DNA of 20,348 nt from a virus. Every line of letters starts with the position of its first letter. Positions within the stretch are counted from its first letter, which is position 1. The notes below the pieces were generated by a model, which worked only from the letters and a program-made list of their open reading frames with translations, was not told the origin of the DNA and ran no database searches. This document shows, piece by piece, positions 2,092 through 12,397 of this stretch. The position numbers and the translations under genes were made by a program. The stretch spans positions 1-20,348 of the IMG/VR virus record IMGVR_UViG_3300020172_002910, one strand, 5' to 3'.

Positions 2092-3498
2092 TTACAAAGA
2101 TTTCATTAATTTGTTTATACGTTCTTTAATGTTTGATTCTGCAGCCATTGTTGGTTTATCAACGATATGGGTACGAGTAAAGAATGTAATTGTATTTCCA
2201 ATTTGGTCTGTTAATTTATCGTCGCCTAATTTTTCTGCTGCTACTTGAGCTTGAGTTAAAGCATCTTGTACTGATTTTACATTTGGGTCAACTTCAGCAG
2301 TAGTAACATCAGCCATTGTTTCTTCATCGCCTACTGTTACATCAACGTCTTTAATATCTTCTACTTCTTCATCTTTTTTAGCTTCGCTTAATTTAGAATT
2401 CATTGCTTCTTCTTTAGCAGCTTTTATTACCATTGAAATAGCAGAAAACAAATCATCATTTAAGTACAATTCTGCGTGATATTCATCTACAAGCTTATTA
2501 AGTGCTATAATAAATTCTTTGATACGTGCTGCTTTATTCATATCAAATTCACTTGCTTCATATACTGGATCGTATAATGATTCGTCATCGTTGATGTTTA
2601 AATCTTCTTCACCTTCAGCTAATGCTTTAATTGCTGCTTTAAGTTCAGACATTTTCATTTTTTTCTTTTCGATTTCTTCGCCTTTTTTAACGCCAGCACC
2701 GTATATATTTTTTTCACCTTTTTTACCTAAACGTTTAGCGTCTTTAGCTCTATCGTAATCGGTATCGCCTTCGTTAATATTTTGTTCAGCTTCTTCTTTT
2801 GATTTATACATTCCTTTTCTTTTACCAGTTTTTTGATTATATAAAAAGTAATGTTTTTTACCACCGATAATTTCTTCACCTACAGTCCAATCAGATTTTT
2901 CTGATGCTTCTTTAATATTAGAGTTAAGTAATTTATCAGCATCAACTGTGATTTGAACATAGTCATCTAAAGCTTCAACTTTACCACCTATAGAATCTAT
3001 AATTTTAACAAAAGCATGGTCTGATCCTAGCACATCTTTCCAATTTTCTTCAGTGATACCTTCTAGTCCGAATTCATTTTCTATATCTTCTATATCATCG
3101 AATACAACAGAAAAACTTATTGTACCATCATCTTCAATAAATCCAGAATAATCACCACTGTCAGCTGATATTTCAATTTGATCATCATAAGGTGCAGGTC
3201 CTTTTATAACTTTAAATCCTTCTTCAATATTTTCATCTAAAAAATGTCCATAATCATCTAGTAAGTCCCAGTTAGATAAAAGATTTTTAATAGCTAATTT
3301 ACCTTTTGGAGTTAATTCACCATTTCTATCTGACCAACCAACAATAGCGCTTTCTAAATCACTGTAGAAATCACTATCTTTACCAAACTCATCTGCTACG
3401 TCAGCTAACATAGCGTAAAGTTTAGATTTATTTTCGTTTAATTGTGACTCGGTAATTAAACCAGCCAATTTTTGCATTCTTTTAAATTCGTTTGCCAT
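2092..3498 (-). CDS. Acidic, scaffold/prohead core-like protein with multiple protease-type sites
   Basis: A 468-residue, strongly charged protein that is mostly helical with low-complexity acidic and Lys-rich stretches. It starts MANEFKRMQKLAGLITESQL, and from memory the FKRMQKLAGLITES type of N-terminus is frequent in structural proteins of aquatic phages. Six sites fit the T4 prohead-protease rule [L/I]-x-E followed by a small residue: after E17, E93, E197, E243, E295 and E372. A compact alpha/beta-looking segment (about residues 203-240, including HYFLYNQKTGKRKGMYKSKE) sits between the charged regions. No catalytic motif was seen. The profile suits a head scaffold or internal core protein cut during maturation, but the assignment is inference. 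It follows one of the three long intergenic gaps and heads a unit with the histone-like protein and the left-edge virion gene. Confidence 0.7.
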   Translation of the reverse strand: MANEFKRMQKLAGLITESQLNENKSKLYAMLADVADEFGKDSDFYSDLESAIVGWSDRNGELTPKGKLAIKNLLSNWDLLDDYGHFLDENIEEGFKVIKGPAPYDDQIEISADSGDYSGFIEDDGTISFSVVFDDIEDIENEFGLEGITEENWKDVLGSDHAFVKIIDSIGGKVEALDDYVQITVDADKLLNSNIKEASEKSDWTVGEEIIGGKKHYFLYNQKTGKRKGMYKSKEEAEQNINEGDTDYDRAKDAKRLGKKGEKNIYGAGVKKGEEIEKKKMKMSELKAAIKALAEGEEDLNINDDESLYDPVYEASEFDMNKAARIKEFIIALNKLVDEYHAELYLNDDLFSAISMVIKAAKEEAMNSKLSEAKKDEEVEDIKDVDVTVGDEETMADVTTAEVDPNVKSVQDALTQAQVAAEKLGDDKLTDQIGNTITFFTRTHIVDKPTMAAESNIKERINKLMKSL

Positions 3499-4929: not shown

Positions 4930-5433
4930 TTATTTTCCTGATGAAACGAATAAAAATAAAAGTCCGCCTAAAATAACTAACATACCAGCACCTGTTGCTA
5001 GGTGATTTTTTACTTTAGCTTTTTTAACGTCTTTCTTTAAATCTTTTGTATAATTAATATATTGTGATTCTTTTTCTTTATATAATAGTATTTGTTTAGC
5101 GTATGCTTGGGTTTTAACCTGGTGAGCGCTAATAATACTATCTTGCATTTTTGATTTTTGTTCAGTTGCTTTATACATATCGTATATAGCAGATAATTGT
5201 GCTTTAGCACTGTCGCCGCTCATTAAATCTAAAATCATTTGTTTAGCTACATAAGCCGGGATGATTATTTTTGTTGTATCTTTATATTCATTTACAACCG
5301 TATAATGATCAATAACTTTATTATTTGAATCAGTAATGGTTACTATAGCTACGGTATCTTTAATATCTATTAATTGTTGAGCATTAGTATTAAATGAAAA
5401 TAATAATATCAGTATGGTAATTAAATATTTCAT
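4930..5433 (-). CDS. Exported coiled-coil protein with C-terminal membrane segment, possible lysis factor
   Basis: A 167-residue protein. Residues 1-18 look like a Sec signal peptide (MKYLITILILLFSFNTNA, with likely cleavage before QQ) and contain no lipobox cysteine. The mature part has a short beta-rich start and then a helical, probably coiled-coil segment (about residues 75-140). A C-terminal transmembrane helix covers about 146-163 (ATGAGMLVILGGLLFLFVSS). A periplasmic coiled coil between a cleaved signal and a C-terminal anchor resembles some spanin-like or lysis-associated proteins of Bacteroidota phages, but no family is recognised. It overlaps the preceding gene, another N-terminally anchored coiled-coil protein, by one base. 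That pairing is the main reason to suspect a joint envelope function. Confidence 0.65.
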   Translation of the reverse strand: MKYLITILILLFSFNTNAQQLIDIKDTVAIVTITDSNNKVIDHYTVVNEYKDTTKIIIPAYVAKQMILDLMSGDSAKAQLSAIYDMYKATEQKSKMQDSIISAHQVKTQAYAKQILLYKEKESQYINYTKDLKKDVKKAKVKNHLATGAGMLVILGGLLFLFVSSGK

Positions 5434-5771
5434 TAGTAGTTGTATCTAGATTTAAAGAATGAATCAATTTGAGAAGGATGATATTCTGATGCTTTTAAAC
5501 GAGCTTCTTTATATTTTTTCTCAATATTAACTATTTTTGTTTTTTCTACTTCAATAATATTATCTAAATAAACAATACTATCTTGATAAACTACAATAAT
5601 ACTGTCTTGTTTAACGTGTACTGAGTCTAGTATAGTTACTTCATGAGATAGACTATCGATTGCGTGTTCGTATTGTTCGTATTTAGCAGTATTGTCTTGG
5701 AATACTTTATATACCATCCAAATACAAACTAGTATTGCTACGACTGTAATTATTTTACCTAAGTATTTCAT
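5433..5771 (-). CDS. N-terminally anchored periplasmic coiled-coil protein, i-spanin-like
   Basis: A 112-residue protein. Residues 4-24 (LGKIITVVAILVCIWMVYKVF) form a transmembrane helix. It is followed by a long helical region with repeated QDSI/LDSV elements (KQDSIIVVYQDSIVYLDN) and a polar C-terminus. This topology, one N-terminal anchor and a periplasmic coiled coil of modest length, is that of inner-membrane spanins (Rz type). No sequence-level family match can be claimed. Its stop overlaps the start of the next gene, which encodes an exported coiled-coil protein. No endolysin or holin gene is visible in the window, which weakens a lysis assignment. Confidence 0.65.
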   Translation of the reverse strand: MKYLGKIITVVAILVCIWMVYKVFQDNTAKYEQYEHAIDSLSHEVTILDSVHVKQDSIIVVYQDSIVYLDNIIEVEKTKIVNIEKKYKEARLKASEYHPSQIDSFFKSRYNY

Positions 5772-6004
5772 TATTTAAATTTAGCATTTAATTCTTTTTC
5801 ATATTCGTTACATAGTTTAATTAATAAACTTTGTATTTTGTATGATTCTACAGTACCTGTAACTCCTAAAGATTCAAGATAAGCACCTAATTCAGAGGCA
5901 ACAGCATTTGTATTAGTTAAACCATCAAATACATTATCATAAGATAATGATTCTTCGTTTAACAGTCTTTGTTGCCATTCTGATATGTTAATATTTTTTG
6001 ACAT
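5771..6004 (-). CDS. Small protein with LNE leader, unknown function
   Basis: A 77-residue helical protein. It begins MSKNINISEWQQRLLNEESL, where LNE (residues 15-17) followed by a polar residue resembles the prohead-protease-type leader seen in several neighbours. The rest (LGAYLESLGVTGTVESYKIQ and a closing acidic/basic helix) has no recognised motif. The ATG lies 5 nt after the previous stop, and its own stop overlaps the next start by one base. Confidence 0.6.
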   Translation of the reverse strand: MSKNINISEWQQRLLNEESLSYDNVFDGLTNTNAVASELGAYLESLGVTGTVESYKIQSLLIKLCNEYEKELNAKFK

Positions 6005-6009
6005 GTTGT

Positions 6010-6348
6010 TTATTTGAGTGTTTTAAGAATTTCTTCCTTAATCATTGCTCTAAATTCTGATTTTTTCATAAGTTTAGATTCATTTGCCGGGGTTAATTTA
6101 ACGTCTGTTTTAATTTTAACAGCAACGCCGTGTTTACCACCTAAGTCTTTTAATTTTTTAGCTACTGAATCTGCACCTTCTCCGTTTACGTCGACAATCA
6201 AAGTATCAGGTTTAACTGAAGGTTTAATTGTTACTTTACAGTCTGGGAATTTGATTTGGAAGTTTTTAGTATCAACTAAACGATTTACGTCTTGTTTAAC
6301 TGTGTCTAATTTACTGTCTGATGTGAATATTACTCTTCTGAATGCCAT
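6010..6348 (-). CDS. Small alpha/beta protein with C-terminal FRxxIKEEI helix, unknown function
   Basis: A 112-residue protein. The body has alternating predicted strands and helices (RRVIFTSDSK, CKVTIKPSV, DTLIVDVNGEGADSVAKKL, HGVAVKIKTD), consistent with a small ferredoxin-like fold. The C-terminal 20 residues, KLMKKSEFRAMIKEEILKTL, form a distinct amphipathic helix. From memory, KSExRxxIREEI-type helices recur at the ends of unrelated proteins in aquatic phages, possibly as virion-targeting or protease-processed tails. Here IKE lies inside that helix. No enzymatic motif was found. Confidence 0.6.
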   Translation of the reverse strand: MAFRRVIFTSDSKLDTVKQDVNRLVDTKNFQIKFPDCKVTIKPSVKPDTLIVDVNGEGADSVAKKLKDLGGKHGVAVKIKTDVKLTPANESKLMKKSEFRAMIKEEILKTLK

Positions 6349-6349
6349 G

Positions 6350-6883
6350 TTAAAGTCCTAGTTTTTTTAAATCGTTAATTGTTTGTTCTGTGGATATAAA
6401 TAATATACCTTTTCCGCCTTTAGCGTTCCATTCGTCAATGGTATCAGGTCTATCGTCTATTAATATTGTGTTTGGTTTTGCGTAATTTTGTTTTGTATCA
6501 CGAGATGCTAAAATCAATTTAGTTCCGGGTATGTTATTTTTAACCCATAATCTTTTACCTAAACGTGATTCGTTTTCTCTTGAAGGTGCGGATAATAAAA
6601 TTGGGTTATATTGCTTAATGTAATCCCATAATTGTTTTCCTTGTGGCATCCAAGGGATACCAACCCAATATTTAACGCCTTCTTTAGATATTGCATTCCA
6701 AAATTGTTCTTTACCAAATTTGGATTCGTATTCTCTAGGAGACATTTTAAAAAATTGTTCAAAACGCTTATCAAAGTCAGCTATAACTCCATCCATATCA
6801 CAATATATAGTGTATTGTGGTTTGGATGCTTCTTCTTCCTCTCTCAATTGCTGGATTTTGGGTGTTAATTTATATTTATACAT
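6350..6883 (-). CDS. HAD-family 5'-nucleotidase-like phosphatase
   Basis: A 177-residue protein of the haloacid dehalogenase superfamily, closest in layout to 5'(3')-deoxyribonucleotidases. Motif I is CDMDGVIADF, with nucleophile D29 and acid/base D31. Motif II is probably the serine in ILLSAPS (S98). The metal-binding acidic pair is D143-D144 in TILIDDRPDTI. The N-terminal 22 residues (including KIQQLREEEEASKP) precede the fold and contain an LRE that may be part of a leader. It is a clear paralog of the N-terminal domain of the gene just upstream, sharing KRLW/KRFW, an aromatic-polar linker, KPNTILIDD and KGILF/IGILY. The two coding regions overlap by 8 nt. The probable role is dephosphorylating nucleotides or another small phosphate ester; the substrate is unknown. 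Confidence 0.85.
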   Translation of the reverse strand: MYKYKLTPKIQQLREEEEASKPQYTIYCDMDGVIADFDKRFEQFFKMSPREYESKFGKEQFWNAISKEGVKYWVGIPWMPQGKQLWDYIKQYNPILLSAPSRENESRLGKRLWVKNNIPGTKLILASRDTKQNYAKPNTILIDDRPDTIDEWNAKGGKGILFISTEQTINDLKKLGL

Positions 6884-8474
6884 CTTTTCTTTTTAAAACT
6901 ACAAAACGACCTTTTCCTTGAGGTGTATCAAATCCAAGACTAACATCTTTTCTGAAGTATCCTGGTATTCTGTTAAATTTATTGTCAGTTAAATTAGCGT
7001 ATATTTTATGATAATTTTTAGTATCATTATTATCTAAAGATGCTATACCAATATATTCTGGTTCTACTTCTTCAGCAAAATCTAATATAACTTTGTACAT
7101 TGTGTTTAGAATCTTAATATAGTTTTCTTTACCTTGTTGTGGTGCAGAAGTTTTATTATCTTTAGGATGAAACATTATGTTATAAAAGTCACCACCATCA
7201 TCATATGGGTTTTTAACTTGTGCTATATCATAAACATATATTATATCTCCTACTTGAAATTTTCCATTAGTTAAACCACCATATATCTCAGCAGCATTAC
7301 TTGGATTTAAAGTAAGTTCATTTATAGTATGCCATAGATTTTCAGTTAATGTTTTTGGATAATTAAATTTATGATCATCTAAAACATGTTCATTTATTGA
7401 ATTCTTAATACTGTCTTCCCAATTTCTAAACATCATATTTCCTTTTTCATATGCTTCTTTTTCTATATCCGGGAGATTTCCATCTTCGTTTGTGTTGGTA
7501 GTGGTAATATTACCTAATCTACCTTCTAGGTTCTGCATATGGTGAACCATTTCATGAGCGTAAGAACGTAATACGTCTTTTGGATGTCTTCCTAAGGTAT
7601 ATAATGTGATTGATTTTTCACCGGGATTGTAATAGGCTGTGTATCCAAGCAATTTTTCGGCATTTTCAATATCATCATTTATAACCTTTATTTTAGGAAA
7701 CGGTTTGATATTCATCCCGTTATCCATCATGTGTTTAGTTAAAGATACGACCCCTTTCTTGAGATTCCAACCGTTTTCGTGGTTTTCTTTTGAAGGATTA
7801 TTGTCATATCCACATTTATGGCAAATATATAAATCATCTCCACCATCTGCTATGGACCAATGCCAACCGCAATTATCACAAACTATTTCATCTCCAACTA
7901 TTGCTTCTTGAACTGGTTGGTTTTTTAAAGCTTGTAATTGAGCTATAACATTGGAAGGATTATCATATAATATTCCTATACCACCTGCTTTTTGAAATGC
8001 TCTAATATTTTCTGGTTTATCGTCGATTAAAATAGTGTTTGGACGAGCAAATGCCGCTTTTTGGCTTCCGCTTCTTGTCCAGTTTGTTTTAATTTTACCA
8101 ATATTATCTTTTAACCAATCTTCTTTACCTACAATTGGAGCGTCCCAGAAACGTTTTCCTGTTTCAGCTTGTTTAGCTTTAGATAATTCAGGTACCGCTG
8201 ATAGTATTTCTACTTTATTAAAATTATTTTTTATATAATTTACCATTTCCTCAGCTCCCGGTAACCATTTAGCACTAGACCAGAATTCTAAATTATCAAT
8301 AGTATCAGATGCCTTGATAGGACGTTTTTCGCCTGTTTCAGGATCATCTATTATCATTGATTTTAAGCGTTCAGAATAATTGGTTAAAGTATCATCTATA
8401 TCCAAATACACGGTATAGTCTTGATTCTTTTGTTCTAAAAGATCCTTAATTAATTCTTGAACGAGTTGGTTCAT
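6876..8474 (-). CDS. Fusion: HAD phosphatase, zinc ribbon, HExxH metallopeptidase and C-terminal domain
   Basis: A 532-residue protein with at least four parts. Residues 1-14 (MNQLVQELIKDLLE) resemble a leader ending LLE. Residues 19-185 form a HAD domain with motif I VYLDIDDTLTNY (D25, D27) and late acidic pair ILIDDKPENI (D151-D152). Residues 196-225 form a zinc ribbon with C199, C202, C218 and C221 (CDNCGWHW, CHKCGYDN). Residues about 240-370 form a zinc peptidase with the catalytic helix SYAHEMVHHMQNLEGR (H307, E308, H311). A likely third ligand is Glu in DIEKEAYEKGN (E338 or E340). Residues about 385-532 form a further alpha/beta domain. The linker NQPVQEAIVGDE could mark an old gene junction. 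The ATG overlaps the upstream stop by one base. Zinc-ribbon metallopeptidases of this kind are known to me as separate phage genes. The biological substrate is unknown. Confidence 0.85.
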   Translation of the reverse strand: MNQLVQELIKDLLEQKNQDYTVYLDIDDTLTNYSERLKSMIIDDPETGEKRPIKASDTIDNLEFWSSAKWLPGAEEMVNYIKNNFNKVEILSAVPELSKAKQAETGKRFWDAPIVGKEDWLKDNIGKIKTNWTRSGSQKAAFARPNTILIDDKPENIRAFQKAGGIGILYDNPSNVIAQLQALKNQPVQEAIVGDEIVCDNCGWHWSIADGGDDLYICHKCGYDNNPSKENHENGWNLKKGVVSLTKHMMDNGMNIKPFPKIKVINDDIENAEKLLGYTAYYNPGEKSITLYTLGRHPKDVLRSYAHEMVHHMQNLEGRLGNITTTNTNEDGNLPDIEKEAYEKGNMMFRNWEDSIKNSINEHVLDDHKFNYPKTLTENLWHTINELTLNPSNAAEIYGGLTNGKFQVGDIIYVYDIAQVKNPYDDGGDFYNIMFHPKDNKTSAPQQGKENYIKILNTMYKVILDFAEEVEPEYIGIASLDNNDTKNYHKIYANLTDNKFNRIPGYFRKDVSLGFDTPQGKGRFVVLKRKDV

Positions 8475-8860
8475 TATTTTAATTTTTGTATTAATTCTTT
8501 AGCTTTCGCTTTTTTATCTTCGATATCTTTTTTAGTTGTTCTATATTCTTCCATTGAAGATTTAAGTTCATCTAATTGTGTATCACGTGCTTTTAAAAGC
8601 TCAGTTGCTATACGATTAGCATCGGATTTGTTTTTGTAAATACCAACAACGTCTTCAGTACTTAATCCGCCTTTTATTTGGTTAGCGAAATAAAATATGT
8701 CTGATTGGAATAAAATATCGTCTTTAGTACTGTCTTTTGATGGTTTTGTTACTACAAAAAATTTACCTACTTCGTCTACTAAATCAGGATGTTTCGCTCC
8801 TTCAGATAATTCGCCTAGTTCGGCTGATTCTTTTAATAAATCTAATAATGATGTTCTCAT
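8474..8860 (-). CDS. Small leader-bearing protein, unknown function
   Basis: A 128-residue protein. The N-terminus MRTSLLDLLKESAELGELSE contains LKE|S at residues 9-12, a T4-type prohead-protease site preceded by a short helix. The middle (GKFFVVTKPSKDSTKDDILF, YKNKSDANRIATELL) looks like a small alpha/beta domain. The last 40 residues are a charged helix or coiled coil (SSMEEYRTTKKDIEDKKAKA). No known family is recognised. It overlaps the kinase gene by 4 nt upstream (ATGA) and the fusion-enzyme gene by 1 nt downstream, so the three are probably translated in step. Confidence 0.65.
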   Translation of the reverse strand: MRTSLLDLLKESAELGELSEGAKHPDLVDEVGKFFVVTKPSKDSTKDDILFQSDIFYFANQIKGGLSTEDVVGIYKNKSDANRIATELLKARDTQLDELKSSMEEYRTTKKDIEDKKAKAKELIQKLK

Positions 8861-9657
8861 GATAAGAATTGTTTAATTTTTGATTGTGCTTCTTTAGCAG
8901 AAACAGATGAATTAATTATATTTTGAGTTTGATCTGAATTTAGGAAGGATTGCATATCAGCGTTTAATTTAGCTGCTTGTTCTTTTGATTTTGCTTTTTC
9001 CTTATCGGTTTTAGGTTTAGCGTCTTTTGGAGTAAATGGATAGATATATTTTTGTAATATCGCTTCAATATCCTTTAAAGTCTCATCGTTACCTACATTT
9101 GATACCGATACAAAATTATCACCGAATAATTGTTGATATGTTTCGAAGTTTTTAGCTACGCTTAACCAGGTACTTAATACTGCTCCGGGATATAGGCTTC
9201 TATCTTCGCCTTTAGATTTTTCAAATCGTTTTTCGTTACGTTCTAATGCTGTTTCTAAGTCAGTATAAACATATAACATCATCACATCGTAACCAGCATC
9301 TTCAAGTTGTGTTTTAAGTTCTGTTGTGTTTTTAACAGATGCTGAAGTACCGTCTAATATAAAAGAATCCCCATTTGCTATCGCATTAGGGATTAATTCT
9401 GTTTTTATATTTTTGGTTGCAGCGGCCATTGCGGTTGCAAATTTACTACGTTCTTCTGCGCTGGCTGATTTTTGATTTAGTGTAAATCCTTGTTGTTTAG
9501 ATAAAGCGGCAATTGTATCGTCTAAGTTAAATACTTTTAGATTACTTAAATTTAAACCACCCAATACAGTACCTTTACCCGCACCTGGAGCGCCAGCAAG
9601 AATAATGGCTTTAGGTGAATTAGTCGCCTCTTTTAGTATGTTTAATAGTTTAATCAT
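8857..9657 (-). CDS. P-loop kinase, adenylate-kinase/zeta-toxin-like
   Basis: A 266-residue protein. The N-terminal leader MIKLLNILKE|A ends in an LKE|A site. The kinase core begins at residue 15 with strand AIILAGAPGAGKGT, whose Walker A has K28 and T30. NLDDTIAAL (D46-D47) and FILDGTSASV (about 99-108) occupy the positions of the substrate-binding and second acidic strands of nucleoside-monophosphate kinases and zeta-type kinases. Residues 134-158 (LETALERNEKRF...) are the Arg-rich lid-like region. The C-terminal 55 residues are Lys/Ala/Gln-rich and helical. It may phosphorylate a nucleotide, a sugar nucleotide or a polynucleotide end; sequence alone does not decide. The ATG overlaps the upstream stop by 4 nt. 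Confidence 0.8.
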   Translation of the reverse strand: MIKLLNILKEATNSPKAIILAGAPGAGKGTVLGGLNLSNLKVFNLDDTIAALSKQQGFTLNQKSASAEERSKFATAMAAATKNIKTELIPNAIANGDSFILDGTSASVKNTTELKTQLEDAGYDVMMLYVYTDLETALERNEKRFEKSKGEDRSLYPGAVLSTWLSVAKNFETYQQLFGDNFVSVSNVGNDETLKDIEAILQKYIYPFTPKDAKPKTDKEKAKSKEQAAKLNADMQSFLNSDQTQNIINSSVSAKEAQSKIKQFLS

Positions 9658-10106
9658 TTTAATTTTACTATAGTATTATCTCCGGATTGAGTAACTTCAG
9701 CACCAGGATATGCTCTTTTAATATAAGCTAAGTATATGTTTTTTCTTCTATCGTCATCCGTACCTTCTTTTTTAGCTGAGAATTGTAGGGTTTTGATTGA
9801 TTTATTTTTCTTTAATACCATTTTCATAGCTTCCTGTACAGTAGCCATTATGGATAACATTTCGAATCTATTAGTTAAGGTATGTTCATCACCACCTTTT
9901 TCATCATTATCTAACGCTTCAAAATTAGCGATTGCCGTTGGACCTTGACCTTCAATGTCTTCAACGGCAATGCTTAATTCATATTTTAACCCGGATTTTG
10001 TGGTAAAGTAAAATGTACTTATCCATTCGGGATCTACTTCCTTGTATGTAAATTTAAGAGGTGATGAATCTCCTATTTCTAATATTAAATCTTTAAATTT
10101 TATCAT
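9654..10106 (-). CDS. Leader-bearing small alpha/beta domain protein, conserved-type unknown
   Basis: A 150-residue protein, first gene of the 13-gene block. The N-terminus MIKFKDLILE|IGDSS fits the leader pattern (ILE at 8-10). A beta-rich part follows (STFYFTTKSGLKYELSIAVE), then a helix with MLSIMATVQEAMKMVLKKN, a strand IKTLQFSAKKE and a segment KNIYLAYIKRAYPGAEV. From memory this is a common aquatic-phage domain of unknown function. The C-terminal domain of the HAD/peptidase fusion (about residues 385-532) shows a similar order of elements by eye (IKILNTMYKVILDF, IYANLTDN, IPGYF), suggesting the same domain family. It follows a 45-nt intergenic gap with a promoter-like element. Confidence 0.7.
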   Translation of the reverse strand: MIKFKDLILEIGDSSPLKFTYKEVDPEWISTFYFTTKSGLKYELSIAVEDIEGQGPTAIANFEALDNDEKGGDEHTLTNRFEMLSIMATVQEAMKMVLKKNKSIKTLQFSAKKEGTDDDRRKNIYLAYIKRAYPGAEVTQSGDNTIVKLK

Positions 10107-11929: not shown

Positions 11930-12397
11930 CTACTCTTGGGAAGCCAAATCTTTCGGGAAGAATTTTCCTAGTATATTGCTGTTAACCCATACTTTATCAT
12001 CGGCTAATACATCGTAATCGAATAGGTATTTAGTCTCATAGTAGGTTAATGCCTTCGATGACCTACATAAACGTAATACAACACGAGTGAGTTTATCAGT
12101 AGGCGTTGTTTTAGCCCATTGTTTAACTTCATCCGCGGAACCATAATATGTTTTCCAGTCAGATTCTTTAACTACTTTCTTTTTAGATGGGACACGACCA
12201 CGTTGAGTTGGTAAAGCAGCTAGTTCCTTTTTACCTAATTTTTTATTTGTGGTATGTTTAAATATTTTTTTGCCTATATACTGACGACCTGTTTCTAAAT
12301 TGGTTGTCATGTAAACGTAACCGTAATAATCATCTGTGTTGAAATTTGGATCATTCATAAGATCCTCAACATAGATGCATTTTTCTTTTTGCATCAT
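11930..12397 (-). CDS. GIY-YIG nuclease, SegE-like
   Basis: A 155-residue protein. The GIY-YIG signature appears as GYVYMTTN (residues 26-33) and RQYIGKK (38-44). Further family positions are SDWKTYYGSADEVK (79-92) and the catalytic Glu in LTYYETKYLFDYDVL (E121), with a final Asn-bearing element VNSNILGKFF. The order and spacing match, from memory, the SegE-type GIY-YIG endonucleases of T4-like phages. No separate DNA-binding module is evident, which is normal for this short type. It may be a homing-type endonuclease or a repair/host-DNA nuclease. Its position directly beside primase and PD-(D/E)XK genes fits either. Two adjacent ATGs exist at 12397 and 12394. Confidence 0.85.
   Translation of the reverse strand: MMQKEKCIYVEDLMNDPNFNTDDYYGYVYMTTNLETGRQYIGKKIFKHTTNKKLGKKELAALPTQRGRVPSKKKVVKESDWKTYYGSADEVKQWAKTTPTDKLTRVVLRLCRSSKALTYYETKYLFDYDVLADDKVWVNSNILGKFFPKDLASQE

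What the first reader, a model, noticed from the sequence alone, without database searches (positions are those of the whole stretch)
5771..10106. Capsid-targeting-like leaders on a set of enzymes: possible injected cargo
Seven proteins in or next to this block begin with a short amphipathic-looking stretch ending in [L/I]-x-E. They are the 150-aa protein (ILE, residue 10), the kinase (LKE|A, 10), the 128-aa protein (LKE|S, 11), the HAD/peptidase fusion (LLE, 14), the second HAD (LRE, 15), the 77-aa protein (LNE, 17), and outside the block the 468-aa protein (ITE|S, 17). In T4, internal proteins IPI-III and Alt carry an N-terminal capsid-targeting sequence cut after [L/I]-x-E by gp21 and are injected with the DNA. 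Several catalytic domains begin directly after the site. A coordinated operon of packaged enzymes (kinase, phosphatases, metallopeptidase) that act at the start of infection would be an interesting cargo system. The sites are seen directly; cargo status is inference.
Basis: partly seen in the sequence, partly recalled or inferred. Interest (0 to 1): 0.8.

Follow-up and report, generated by a model that had tools for sequence, protein, structure and literature searches.

The report
Phage enzymes tagged for capsid packaging
A virus of marine Flavobacteria-type bacteria carries a set of enzymes and unknown proteins that begin with short, swappable "address labels" like those phage T4 uses to pack proteins into its head, suggesting that these phages inject a large, changeable kit of enzymes along with their DNA.

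Summary
All seven leaders are at the stated positions; 8 of 21 window proteins carry [L/I]-x-E at residues 8-20 against about 2 expected (p=3e-4), while two Bacteroidota phages used as controls show no excess. A sister contig of 147 kb (about 82-93% DNA identity over most shared genes) encodes a gp21-type prohead protease and the T4 head gene order. The kinase's leader site is kept in 96 of 97 distinct homologues, with hydrophobic residues at 4, 7 and 8 and Glu at 10, the positions that T4 IPIII uses for targeting (4, 7) and processing (8, 10). At least four leader classes recur on unrelated proteins, and class 2 (RMQKLAG) also forms the C-terminus of the scaffold protein in six genomes. The same [L/I]-x-E marks the joints of multidomain relatives (108 of 195 joints, 38 expected), so the protease could also cut polyproteins into separate enzymes. 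Best reading: a T4-type capsid-targeting cargo system, much expanded and joined to "polyvalent" effector proteins. Packaging, cleavage and injection themselves are inferred; no virion proteomics was found.

The parts
9654..10106 (-). 150-aa cargo protein, distantly related to DUF6934-type modules inside multidomain relatives; leader MIKFKDLILE|I
   Evidence: gene precisely absent from sister G001 (blastn gap between window 9657 and 10096)
10077..10106 (-). class-1 leader of the 150-aa protein (residues 1-10)
   Evidence: T4-IPIII register 4/7/8/10
8857..9657 (-). P-loop kinase, zeta-toxin / polynucleotide-kinase-like; leader MIKLLNILKE|A
   Evidence: Pfam Zeta_toxin 3e-16; AlphaFold model pLDDT 88; Foldseek to PezT, zeta, Clostridium PNK
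9628..9657 (-). class-1 leader of the kinase (residues 1-10); low-confidence helix outside the fold
   Evidence: [LI]xE in 34 of 35 and in 62 of 62 further homologues; model
8474..8860 (-). 128-aa cargo protein of unknown function; leader MRTSLLDLLKE|S
8828..8860 (-). class-1 leader of the 128-aa protein
   Evidence: held-out profile score above all shuffled decoys
6876..8474 (-). 532-aa multidomain cargo: HAD phosphatase, zinc ribbon, HExxH metallopeptidase, C-terminal domain
8433..8474 (-). leader of the 532-aa protein, MNQLVQELIKDLLE|Q
7905..7913 (-). internal site VQE-190|A between HAD and zinc ribbon/peptidase (IQE in sister G001)
7389..7397 (-). internal site INE-362|H between peptidase and C-terminal domain; the G001 protein ends 2 residues before this point
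6350..6883 (-). second HAD phosphatase, 5'(3')-deoxyribonucleotidase-like; leader ...QQLRE|E
   Evidence: phrog_2643 1e-29; [LI]xE in 44/44 homologues
6839..6883 (-). leader of the second HAD (residues 1-15)
6010..6348 (-). 112-aa protein with a class-3 label at its C-terminus instead of its N-terminus
   Evidence: held-out profile hits at residues 94-107 of 112; same in L083 orthologue
6013..6066 (-). C-terminal label KKSEFRAMIKEEILKTLK; no conserved [LI]xE in front of it
5771..6004 (-). 77-aa cargo protein; leader MSKNINISEWQQRLLNE|E, like Immuto gp069 (MENNFDIHKWQAKFLKE|S) encoded between protease and scaffold
5954..6004 (-). leader of the 77-aa protein
2092..3498 (-). 468-aa protein with class-2 leader FKRMQKLAGLITE|S
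   Evidence: top held-out class-2 hit
3448..3498 (-). class-2 leader; same peptide as the scaffold C-terminus

Best explanation
The leaders are capsid-targeting propeptides of the T4 kind. During head assembly each leader docks its protein onto the scaffold core or inner shell. The gp21-type protease then cuts after [L/I/V]-x-E, frees the leader and leaves the mature protein inside the head, from where it is most likely injected with the DNA. The labels are interchangeable: at least four classes occur on unrelated proteins, and class 2 is the same peptide as the scaffold protein's own C-terminus, so cargo probably docks by imitating core proteins. The enzymes in the window (zeta/PNK-like kinase, two HAD phosphatases, gluzincin-type metallopeptidase) would be injected early effectors. 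In relatives the same modules are fused into long polyproteins with [L/I]-x-E at the joints, which the head protease could cut into separate enzymes. Shown: leaders, their conservation, protease and head genes in relatives, class sharing, sites at joints. Inferred: docking, cleavage, packaging, injection and what the enzymes do to the host.
For: Positional excess with controls. gp21-type protease in the sister genome and 8 other records, in T4-like order portal - small genes - protease - scaffold - major capsid protein. The six capsid proteins carry a conserved V-x-E at about residue 62, just before the conserved core, where T4 gp23 is cut. Kinase family: E10 is as invariant as the P-loop, and residues 4, 7, 8 are always hydrophobic, the same positions as in T4 IPIII (PMC9026906). 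Profiles from Immuto, G002 and G003 hit held-out genomes almost only at protein ends. Scaffold C-terminus carries class 2 in six genomes. Leader swap on the same kinase: L181 has a class-4 leader. Standalone peptidase LINE|IYAEPS against internal PIEE|MYAEPS and PLNE|MYAEPS. Joint test 108/195 vs 37.9 expected. Leader of the kinase is outside the predicted fold. Module-exact differences from sister G001: 150-aa gene, C-terminal domain of the 532-aa protein, and an extra class-2 gene in G001.
Against: No proteomics, so neither cleavage nor packaging is shown. The window itself is a 20-kb fragment without the protease. Whole-proteome enrichment is weak in two relatives that do have the protease (G005 p=0.08, G006 p=0.02). 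The NMNAT-like multidomain relatives start without an [LI]xE leader in about half of the distinct cases (16 of 29), and Immuto gp088 has none. The C-terminal labels have no consistent cut site outside the scaffold. No T4-type late promoter (TATAAATA) was found upstream of the window genes, so late expression is not shown.
Confidence: 0.82

Rival explanations
1. The leaders dock proteins onto the scaffold and are cut, but the proteins act as core or head-assembly factors and are not injected enzymes.
For: T4 IPIII also affects head morphogenesis (PMC9026906). Several carriers sit among core genes next to the protease. Many carriers have no recognised enzyme domain.
Against: The window set consists largely of enzymes with complete catalytic motifs; cargo genes are gained and lost between sister phages and differ between relatives, unlike core head genes.
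Confidence: 0.12
2. The shared N-terminal peptides are assembly or interaction tags with no proteolysis; the [L/I]-x-E is only part of an amphipathic helix.
For: C-terminal versions exist without a clear cut site.
Against: The [L/I]-x-E is kept in 96 of 97 kinase leaders while neighbouring positions vary. At joints of polyproteins the leader is gone but [L/I]-x-E stays, and [L/I]-x-D is not enriched.
Confidence: 0.05
3. Chance: hydrophobic N-terminal helices with a Glu are common and the seven cases are a selected list.
For: [L/I]-x-E at residues 8-20 occurs in about one protein in six by chance, and at least one further window protein with it (the exonuclease, residue 19) is probably chance.
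Against: Excess over matched background, controls without excess, conservation over 97 homologues, positional specificity of held-out profiles.
Confidence: 0.01

Closest known systems
Phage T4 internal proteins IPI-III and Alt with capsid-targeting sequences cut by gp21 (PMC9026906)
   Same: Short N-terminal leader ending [L/I]-x-E, register 4/7/8/10 as in IPIII, gp21-type protease, T4 head gene order, cargo of unrelated proteins; T4 Alt also shows processing at its C-terminus.
   Different: Here many more carriers, at least four leader classes, one of them nearly identical to the scaffold C-terminus, kinases, phosphatases and peptidases as cargo, and sites at the joints of multidomain proteins. 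Packaging is not shown.
Polyvalent proteins of phages and conjugative elements (Iyer et al. 2017, PMC5512222)
   Same: Several unrelated enzyme domains in one chain with a zincin-type metallopeptidase, predicted to enter the cell with the DNA.
   Different: That paper proposes the metallopeptidase as the processor and, in the passages read, describes no T4-type leaders or gp21 sites. Here the joints carry head-protease-type sites and the modules also occur as single proteins with their own leader.
Phage P1 DarB capsid-targeting signal (PMC9024508)
   Same: N-terminal signal (within 30 residues) that brings a large antidefence protein, and a reporter, into the head.
   Different: No shared consensus among P1 Dar proteins; here the consensus is clear and shared by many proteins.
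Giant phage SPN3US / phiKZ head protease substrates (PMC10052503)
   Same: Head protease removes propeptides from ejected proteins.
   Different: Cut motif A-x-E (SPN3US) and mostly long propeptides; here [L/I/V]-x-E and short leaders.

Membership tests
T4-type capsid-targeting sequence (CTS) | short N-terminal propeptide ending in [L/I]-x-E | tested here: met
   sequence motif only
T4-type capsid-targeting sequence (CTS) | hydrophobic residues at 4, 7, 8 and Glu at 10 (IPIII targeting and processing positions) | tested here: met
   class-1 leaders only: 52/52 kinases cut at 10, T4 IPIII itself; classes 2-4 have other spacing, like T4 IPI with its site at residue 19
T4-type capsid-targeting sequence (CTS) | gp21-type (S77) protease in the same phage | tested here: met
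   sister genome G001 and 8 other records; the window is a fragment and does not hold it
T4-type capsid-targeting sequence (CTS) | leader is transferable between unrelated proteins | tested here: met
   by comparison only: classes shared by unrelated bodies, swaps between orthologues
T4-type capsid-targeting sequence (CTS) | protein found in the virion, cut after Glu | not testable with these tools
   no proteomics of these phages found
T4-type capsid-targeting sequence (CTS) | protein injected with the DNA | not testable with these tools
   inference
Polyvalent proteins | two or more disparate domains in one chain | tested here: met
   532-aa protein and relatives with NMNAT-like, HAD, Zn ribbon, peptidase, ADP-ribosyltransferase-like and nucleotidyltransferase domains
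Polyvalent proteins | zincin-type metallopeptidase as common module | tested here: met
   invariant HExxH plus downstream Glu, gluzincin-like model with weak Foldseek support, E 0.03-0.1
Polyvalent proteins | belongs to one of the described MPTase clades | not tested
   clade alignments were not available
Polyvalent proteins | delivered into the host with the DNA | not testable with these tools
   inference

The most novel reading that the evidence does not exclude
A general cargo code in T4-like Flavobacteria phages: a set of short address peptides copied from the termini of scaffold and core proteins is placed at either end of any protein to load it into the head, and long polyproteins are loaded through one such label and cut at [L/I]-x-E joints by the head protease inside the capsid, so that one gene delivers several separate enzymes into the host.
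Probability: 0.45. Interest if true: 0.85.

Novelty: new variant of a known kind. Interest (0 to 1): 0.72.

Why it matters
T4 capsid targeting is a textbook case with a handful of cargo proteins. If these leaders work as they look, sequence alone predicts many injected proteins per phage in a common, mostly uncultured marine group, among them many unknown proteins that probably act on host defence or metabolism in the first minutes of infection. It links two literatures that had been separate (T4 leaders and polyvalent proteins), suggests how cargo docks (by imitating the scaffold end), and gives a set of natural, swappable labels for loading proteins into phage heads. It is directly testable in a cultured phage.

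Tried and rejected
Direct DNA match to known phages: none. Pfam and PHROG annotation of the other leader-bearing proteins: almost all without a family. T4-type late promoter TATAAATA upstream of the cargo genes: none within 150 bases in the window and 5 in 147 kb of G001, so no support for a T4-like late promoter. Nucleotide search with part of the protease locus against cultured phages: none. Published virion proteomics for Immuto or related flavophages: not found. Considered and dropped: that all multidomain relatives are labelled (about half of the NMNAT-first ones lack an [LI]xE leader; several apparent cases were wrong start calls). Considered and kept as weaker: the second HAD and the 57-aa and exonuclease proteins as carriers; only the HAD is supported by homologues. 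Bias noted: in the joint test the alignment can extend over the site, which favours offset 0; the wider window (-15 to +2) and the control motifs are therefore the main result. Profiles include G001 strings and are not held out; those are, although the seeds were picked by eye.
Full report
What the window is. The window is a whole IMG/VR fragment of 20,348 bases from a T4-like phage. A sister contig of 147,248 bases (G001) is about 82-93% identical in DNA over most of the shared genes. The nearest cultured phage found is Flavobacterium phage vB_FspM_immuto, with the same order of tail genes, primase, exonuclease and cargo genes. Two kinase homologues in bacterial assemblies include one in a Flavobacteriales MAG. 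The host is therefore probably a flavobacterium (inference).

Check of the observation. All seven sites are at the stated residues. Counting proteins with [LI]xE at residues 8-20 and taking the expectation from later parts of the same proteins gives 8 of 21 in the window (about 2 expected, p=3e-4), 46 vs 26 in G001, 60 vs 38 in G002, 57 vs 34 in G003 and 46 vs 32 in Immuto; G006 (44 vs 32) and G005 (41 vs 33) are weak. crAss001 (17 vs 15) and phi38:1 (8 vs 8), used as controls, show no excess. The motif is specific: [LI]xD, [KR]xE and [AG]xE are not enriched. In G001 the carriers are concentrated in two blocks, 24.5-53 kb around the head genes (21 of 38) and 89.8-95 kb (5 of 6), against 20 of 112 elsewhere.

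The protease and head genes. Pfam PF03420 (prohead core protease, T4 gp21 family) matches in 9 of 14 relatives including G001 at E=3e-30. The order portal, small genes, protease, scaffold, major capsid protein is that of T4. Six capsid proteins carry a conserved V-x-E near residue 62, just before the conserved core, where T4 gp23 is cut (T4 gp23 has an [LI]xE at residue 65).

Leader classes. By eye the leaders fall into at least four classes: (1) MIKLLxLLKE, (2) FKRMQKLAGLITE, (3) MKKSxLRxLIKEEI, (4) xNFDLKKFLxENKL. Profiles made from Immuto, G002 and G003 were run on the held-out G001, window, G005 and G006 proteomes. The top eight hits of class 1 and of class 2 all start at residues 1-8; class 3 hits lie mostly at the N-terminus or, for the window's 112-aa protein and its G001 copy, at the C-terminus. 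Over 2,338 proteins, hits above the shuffled background were at the N-terminus for 67 of 74 (class 1), 44 of 49 (class 4) and 62 of 92 (class 3), and for class 2 at the N-terminus in 24 and the C-terminus in 9 of 35, although N-termini make up only 8% of positions (these profiles include G001 strings).

Link to the scaffold. In all six genomes the protein between protease and capsid protein ends in the class-2 peptide (RMQKLAGI or RWQKLAGI), preceded in each by an [IV]xE. In G005 the gene before the protease ends in a class-4 peptide, NFDLRKFLKENK. The simplest inference is that cargo is loaded by imitating peptides through which core proteins dock; in T4 the IP propeptides are known to have affinity for the core (PMC9026906).

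Conservation. In the kinase family, 34 of 35 distinct N-termini (down to about 27% identity) carry [LI]xE; the exception (L081) is called without the first residues of the leader. Glu is invariant in the 34, the leader's three key positions are always L or I, and neighbours vary. In the full alignment E10 is as invariant as the P-loop lysine. A second set of 62 distinct homologues, found with patterns from the P-loop and another inner motif and not from the leader, has the site in 62 of 62; all 52 cut at residue 10 are hydrophobic at 4, 7 and 8. Some members of the two sets may be the same phage. T4 IPIII uses residues 4 and 7 for targeting and 8 and 10 for processing (PMC9026906; sequence). 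One homologue, L181, has a class-4 leader in place of class 1. The AlphaFold model shows the leader as a helix of low confidence outside a well-predicted kinase fold.

Modules and polyproteins. The 532-aa protein has only a few candidate sites, and three of them fall at its domain borders: LLE-14, VQE-190 (IQE in G001) and INE-362. The G001 protein ends two residues before the last one. Relatives of the peptidase domain are mosaics of NMNAT-like (PF01467, below cut-off), HAD, zinc-ribbon, peptidase, DUF6934-like, nucleotidyltransferase and, in L003, an ADP-ribosyltransferase-like domain (PF15633, 22.4 bits, under the 25-bit cut-off). The same modules occur alone with their own leader. At the joints the leader is mostly gone but the site stays: LINE|IYAEPS alone, PIEE|MYAEPS and PLNE|MYAEPS inside; LLRE|NDPKKG alone, PLNE|ADPK inside. 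Over 195 non-redundant family pairs, 108 joints have [LI]xE within -15 to +2 against 37.9 expected (z=12.9); [LI]xD, [LI]xQ, [LI]xN and [KR]xE show no excess, [VF]xE does, and the reversed motif shows a smaller one. Some fusions even keep the start Met of the downstream leader.

Function of the cargo. The kinase is zeta-toxin/polynucleotide-kinase-like by Pfam and fold. The second HAD is 5'(3')-deoxyribonucleotidase-like. The peptidase has HExxH and a downstream Glu, invariant in 31 sequences, and resembles minigluzincins weakly. What they do to the host is not known; by analogy with T4 Alt and IPI, early takeover or antidefence is likely (inference).

Relation to known systems. By mechanism this looks like T4 capsid targeting; all sequence-level features tested are met, while cleavage, packaging and injection could not be tested. 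The multidomain relatives fit the definition of polyvalent proteins (PMC5512222). In that paper the metallopeptidase is proposed as processor and T4 Alt-type enzymes are said not to be in genuine polyvalent proteins; the link between T4-type leaders, head-protease sites at joints and polyvalent proteins was not found in the papers searched.

Limits. Starts were called by a simple script and adjusted; single proteins may be wrong. Relatives share ancestry, so counts over homologues are not independent events. About half of the NMNAT-first multidomain forms lack a leader and may not be packaged, may ride with the labelled kinase next to them, or may use another label.

Noticed in passing
window 11930-12397 (-): Protein annotated in PHROGs and in Immuto as 'NAD synthetase' reads like a GIY-YIG nuclease (GYVYMTT...YIGKK) and also matches a homing-endonuclease family; the public name is probably wrong.
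   Followed up: no
NC_055915 125626-126867 (Immuto gp067, L154): Annotated 'DNA polymerase phi-like protein' but by position and sequence it is the head scaffold protein with the class-2 C-terminus.
   Followed up: yes
window 9654-10106, 6893-7413 and 5298-5432 against G001: Module-exact differences between sister phages: the 150-aa gene and the C-terminal domain of the 532-aa protein are missing from G001, which instead has an extra class-2 gene (28192-28938).
   Followed up: partly
window 4930-5433 and 5433-5771 (-): Two small genes in a row, one with a signal-peptide-like start and a C-terminal membrane stretch, one with an N-terminal membrane helix and coiled coil; possibly a spanin-like lysis pair.
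   Followed up: no
L003:3660-7088, residues 548-594: HYD1-type ADP-ribosyltransferase-like domain inside a leader-bearing polyprotein, recalling T4 Alt; below Pfam cut-off.
   Followed up: partly
L011:11871-12797, L030:17691-18401, L014:12821-13321: Internal class-3 leaders that still contain their start Met, as if two cargo genes had been fused head to tail.
   Followed up: no
PP395634.1 24611-24967 (Microcystis phage Mel-JY01): A cyanobacterial phage has a relative of the scaffold C-terminal part, so the docking peptide may reach beyond Flavobacteria phages.
   Followed up: no
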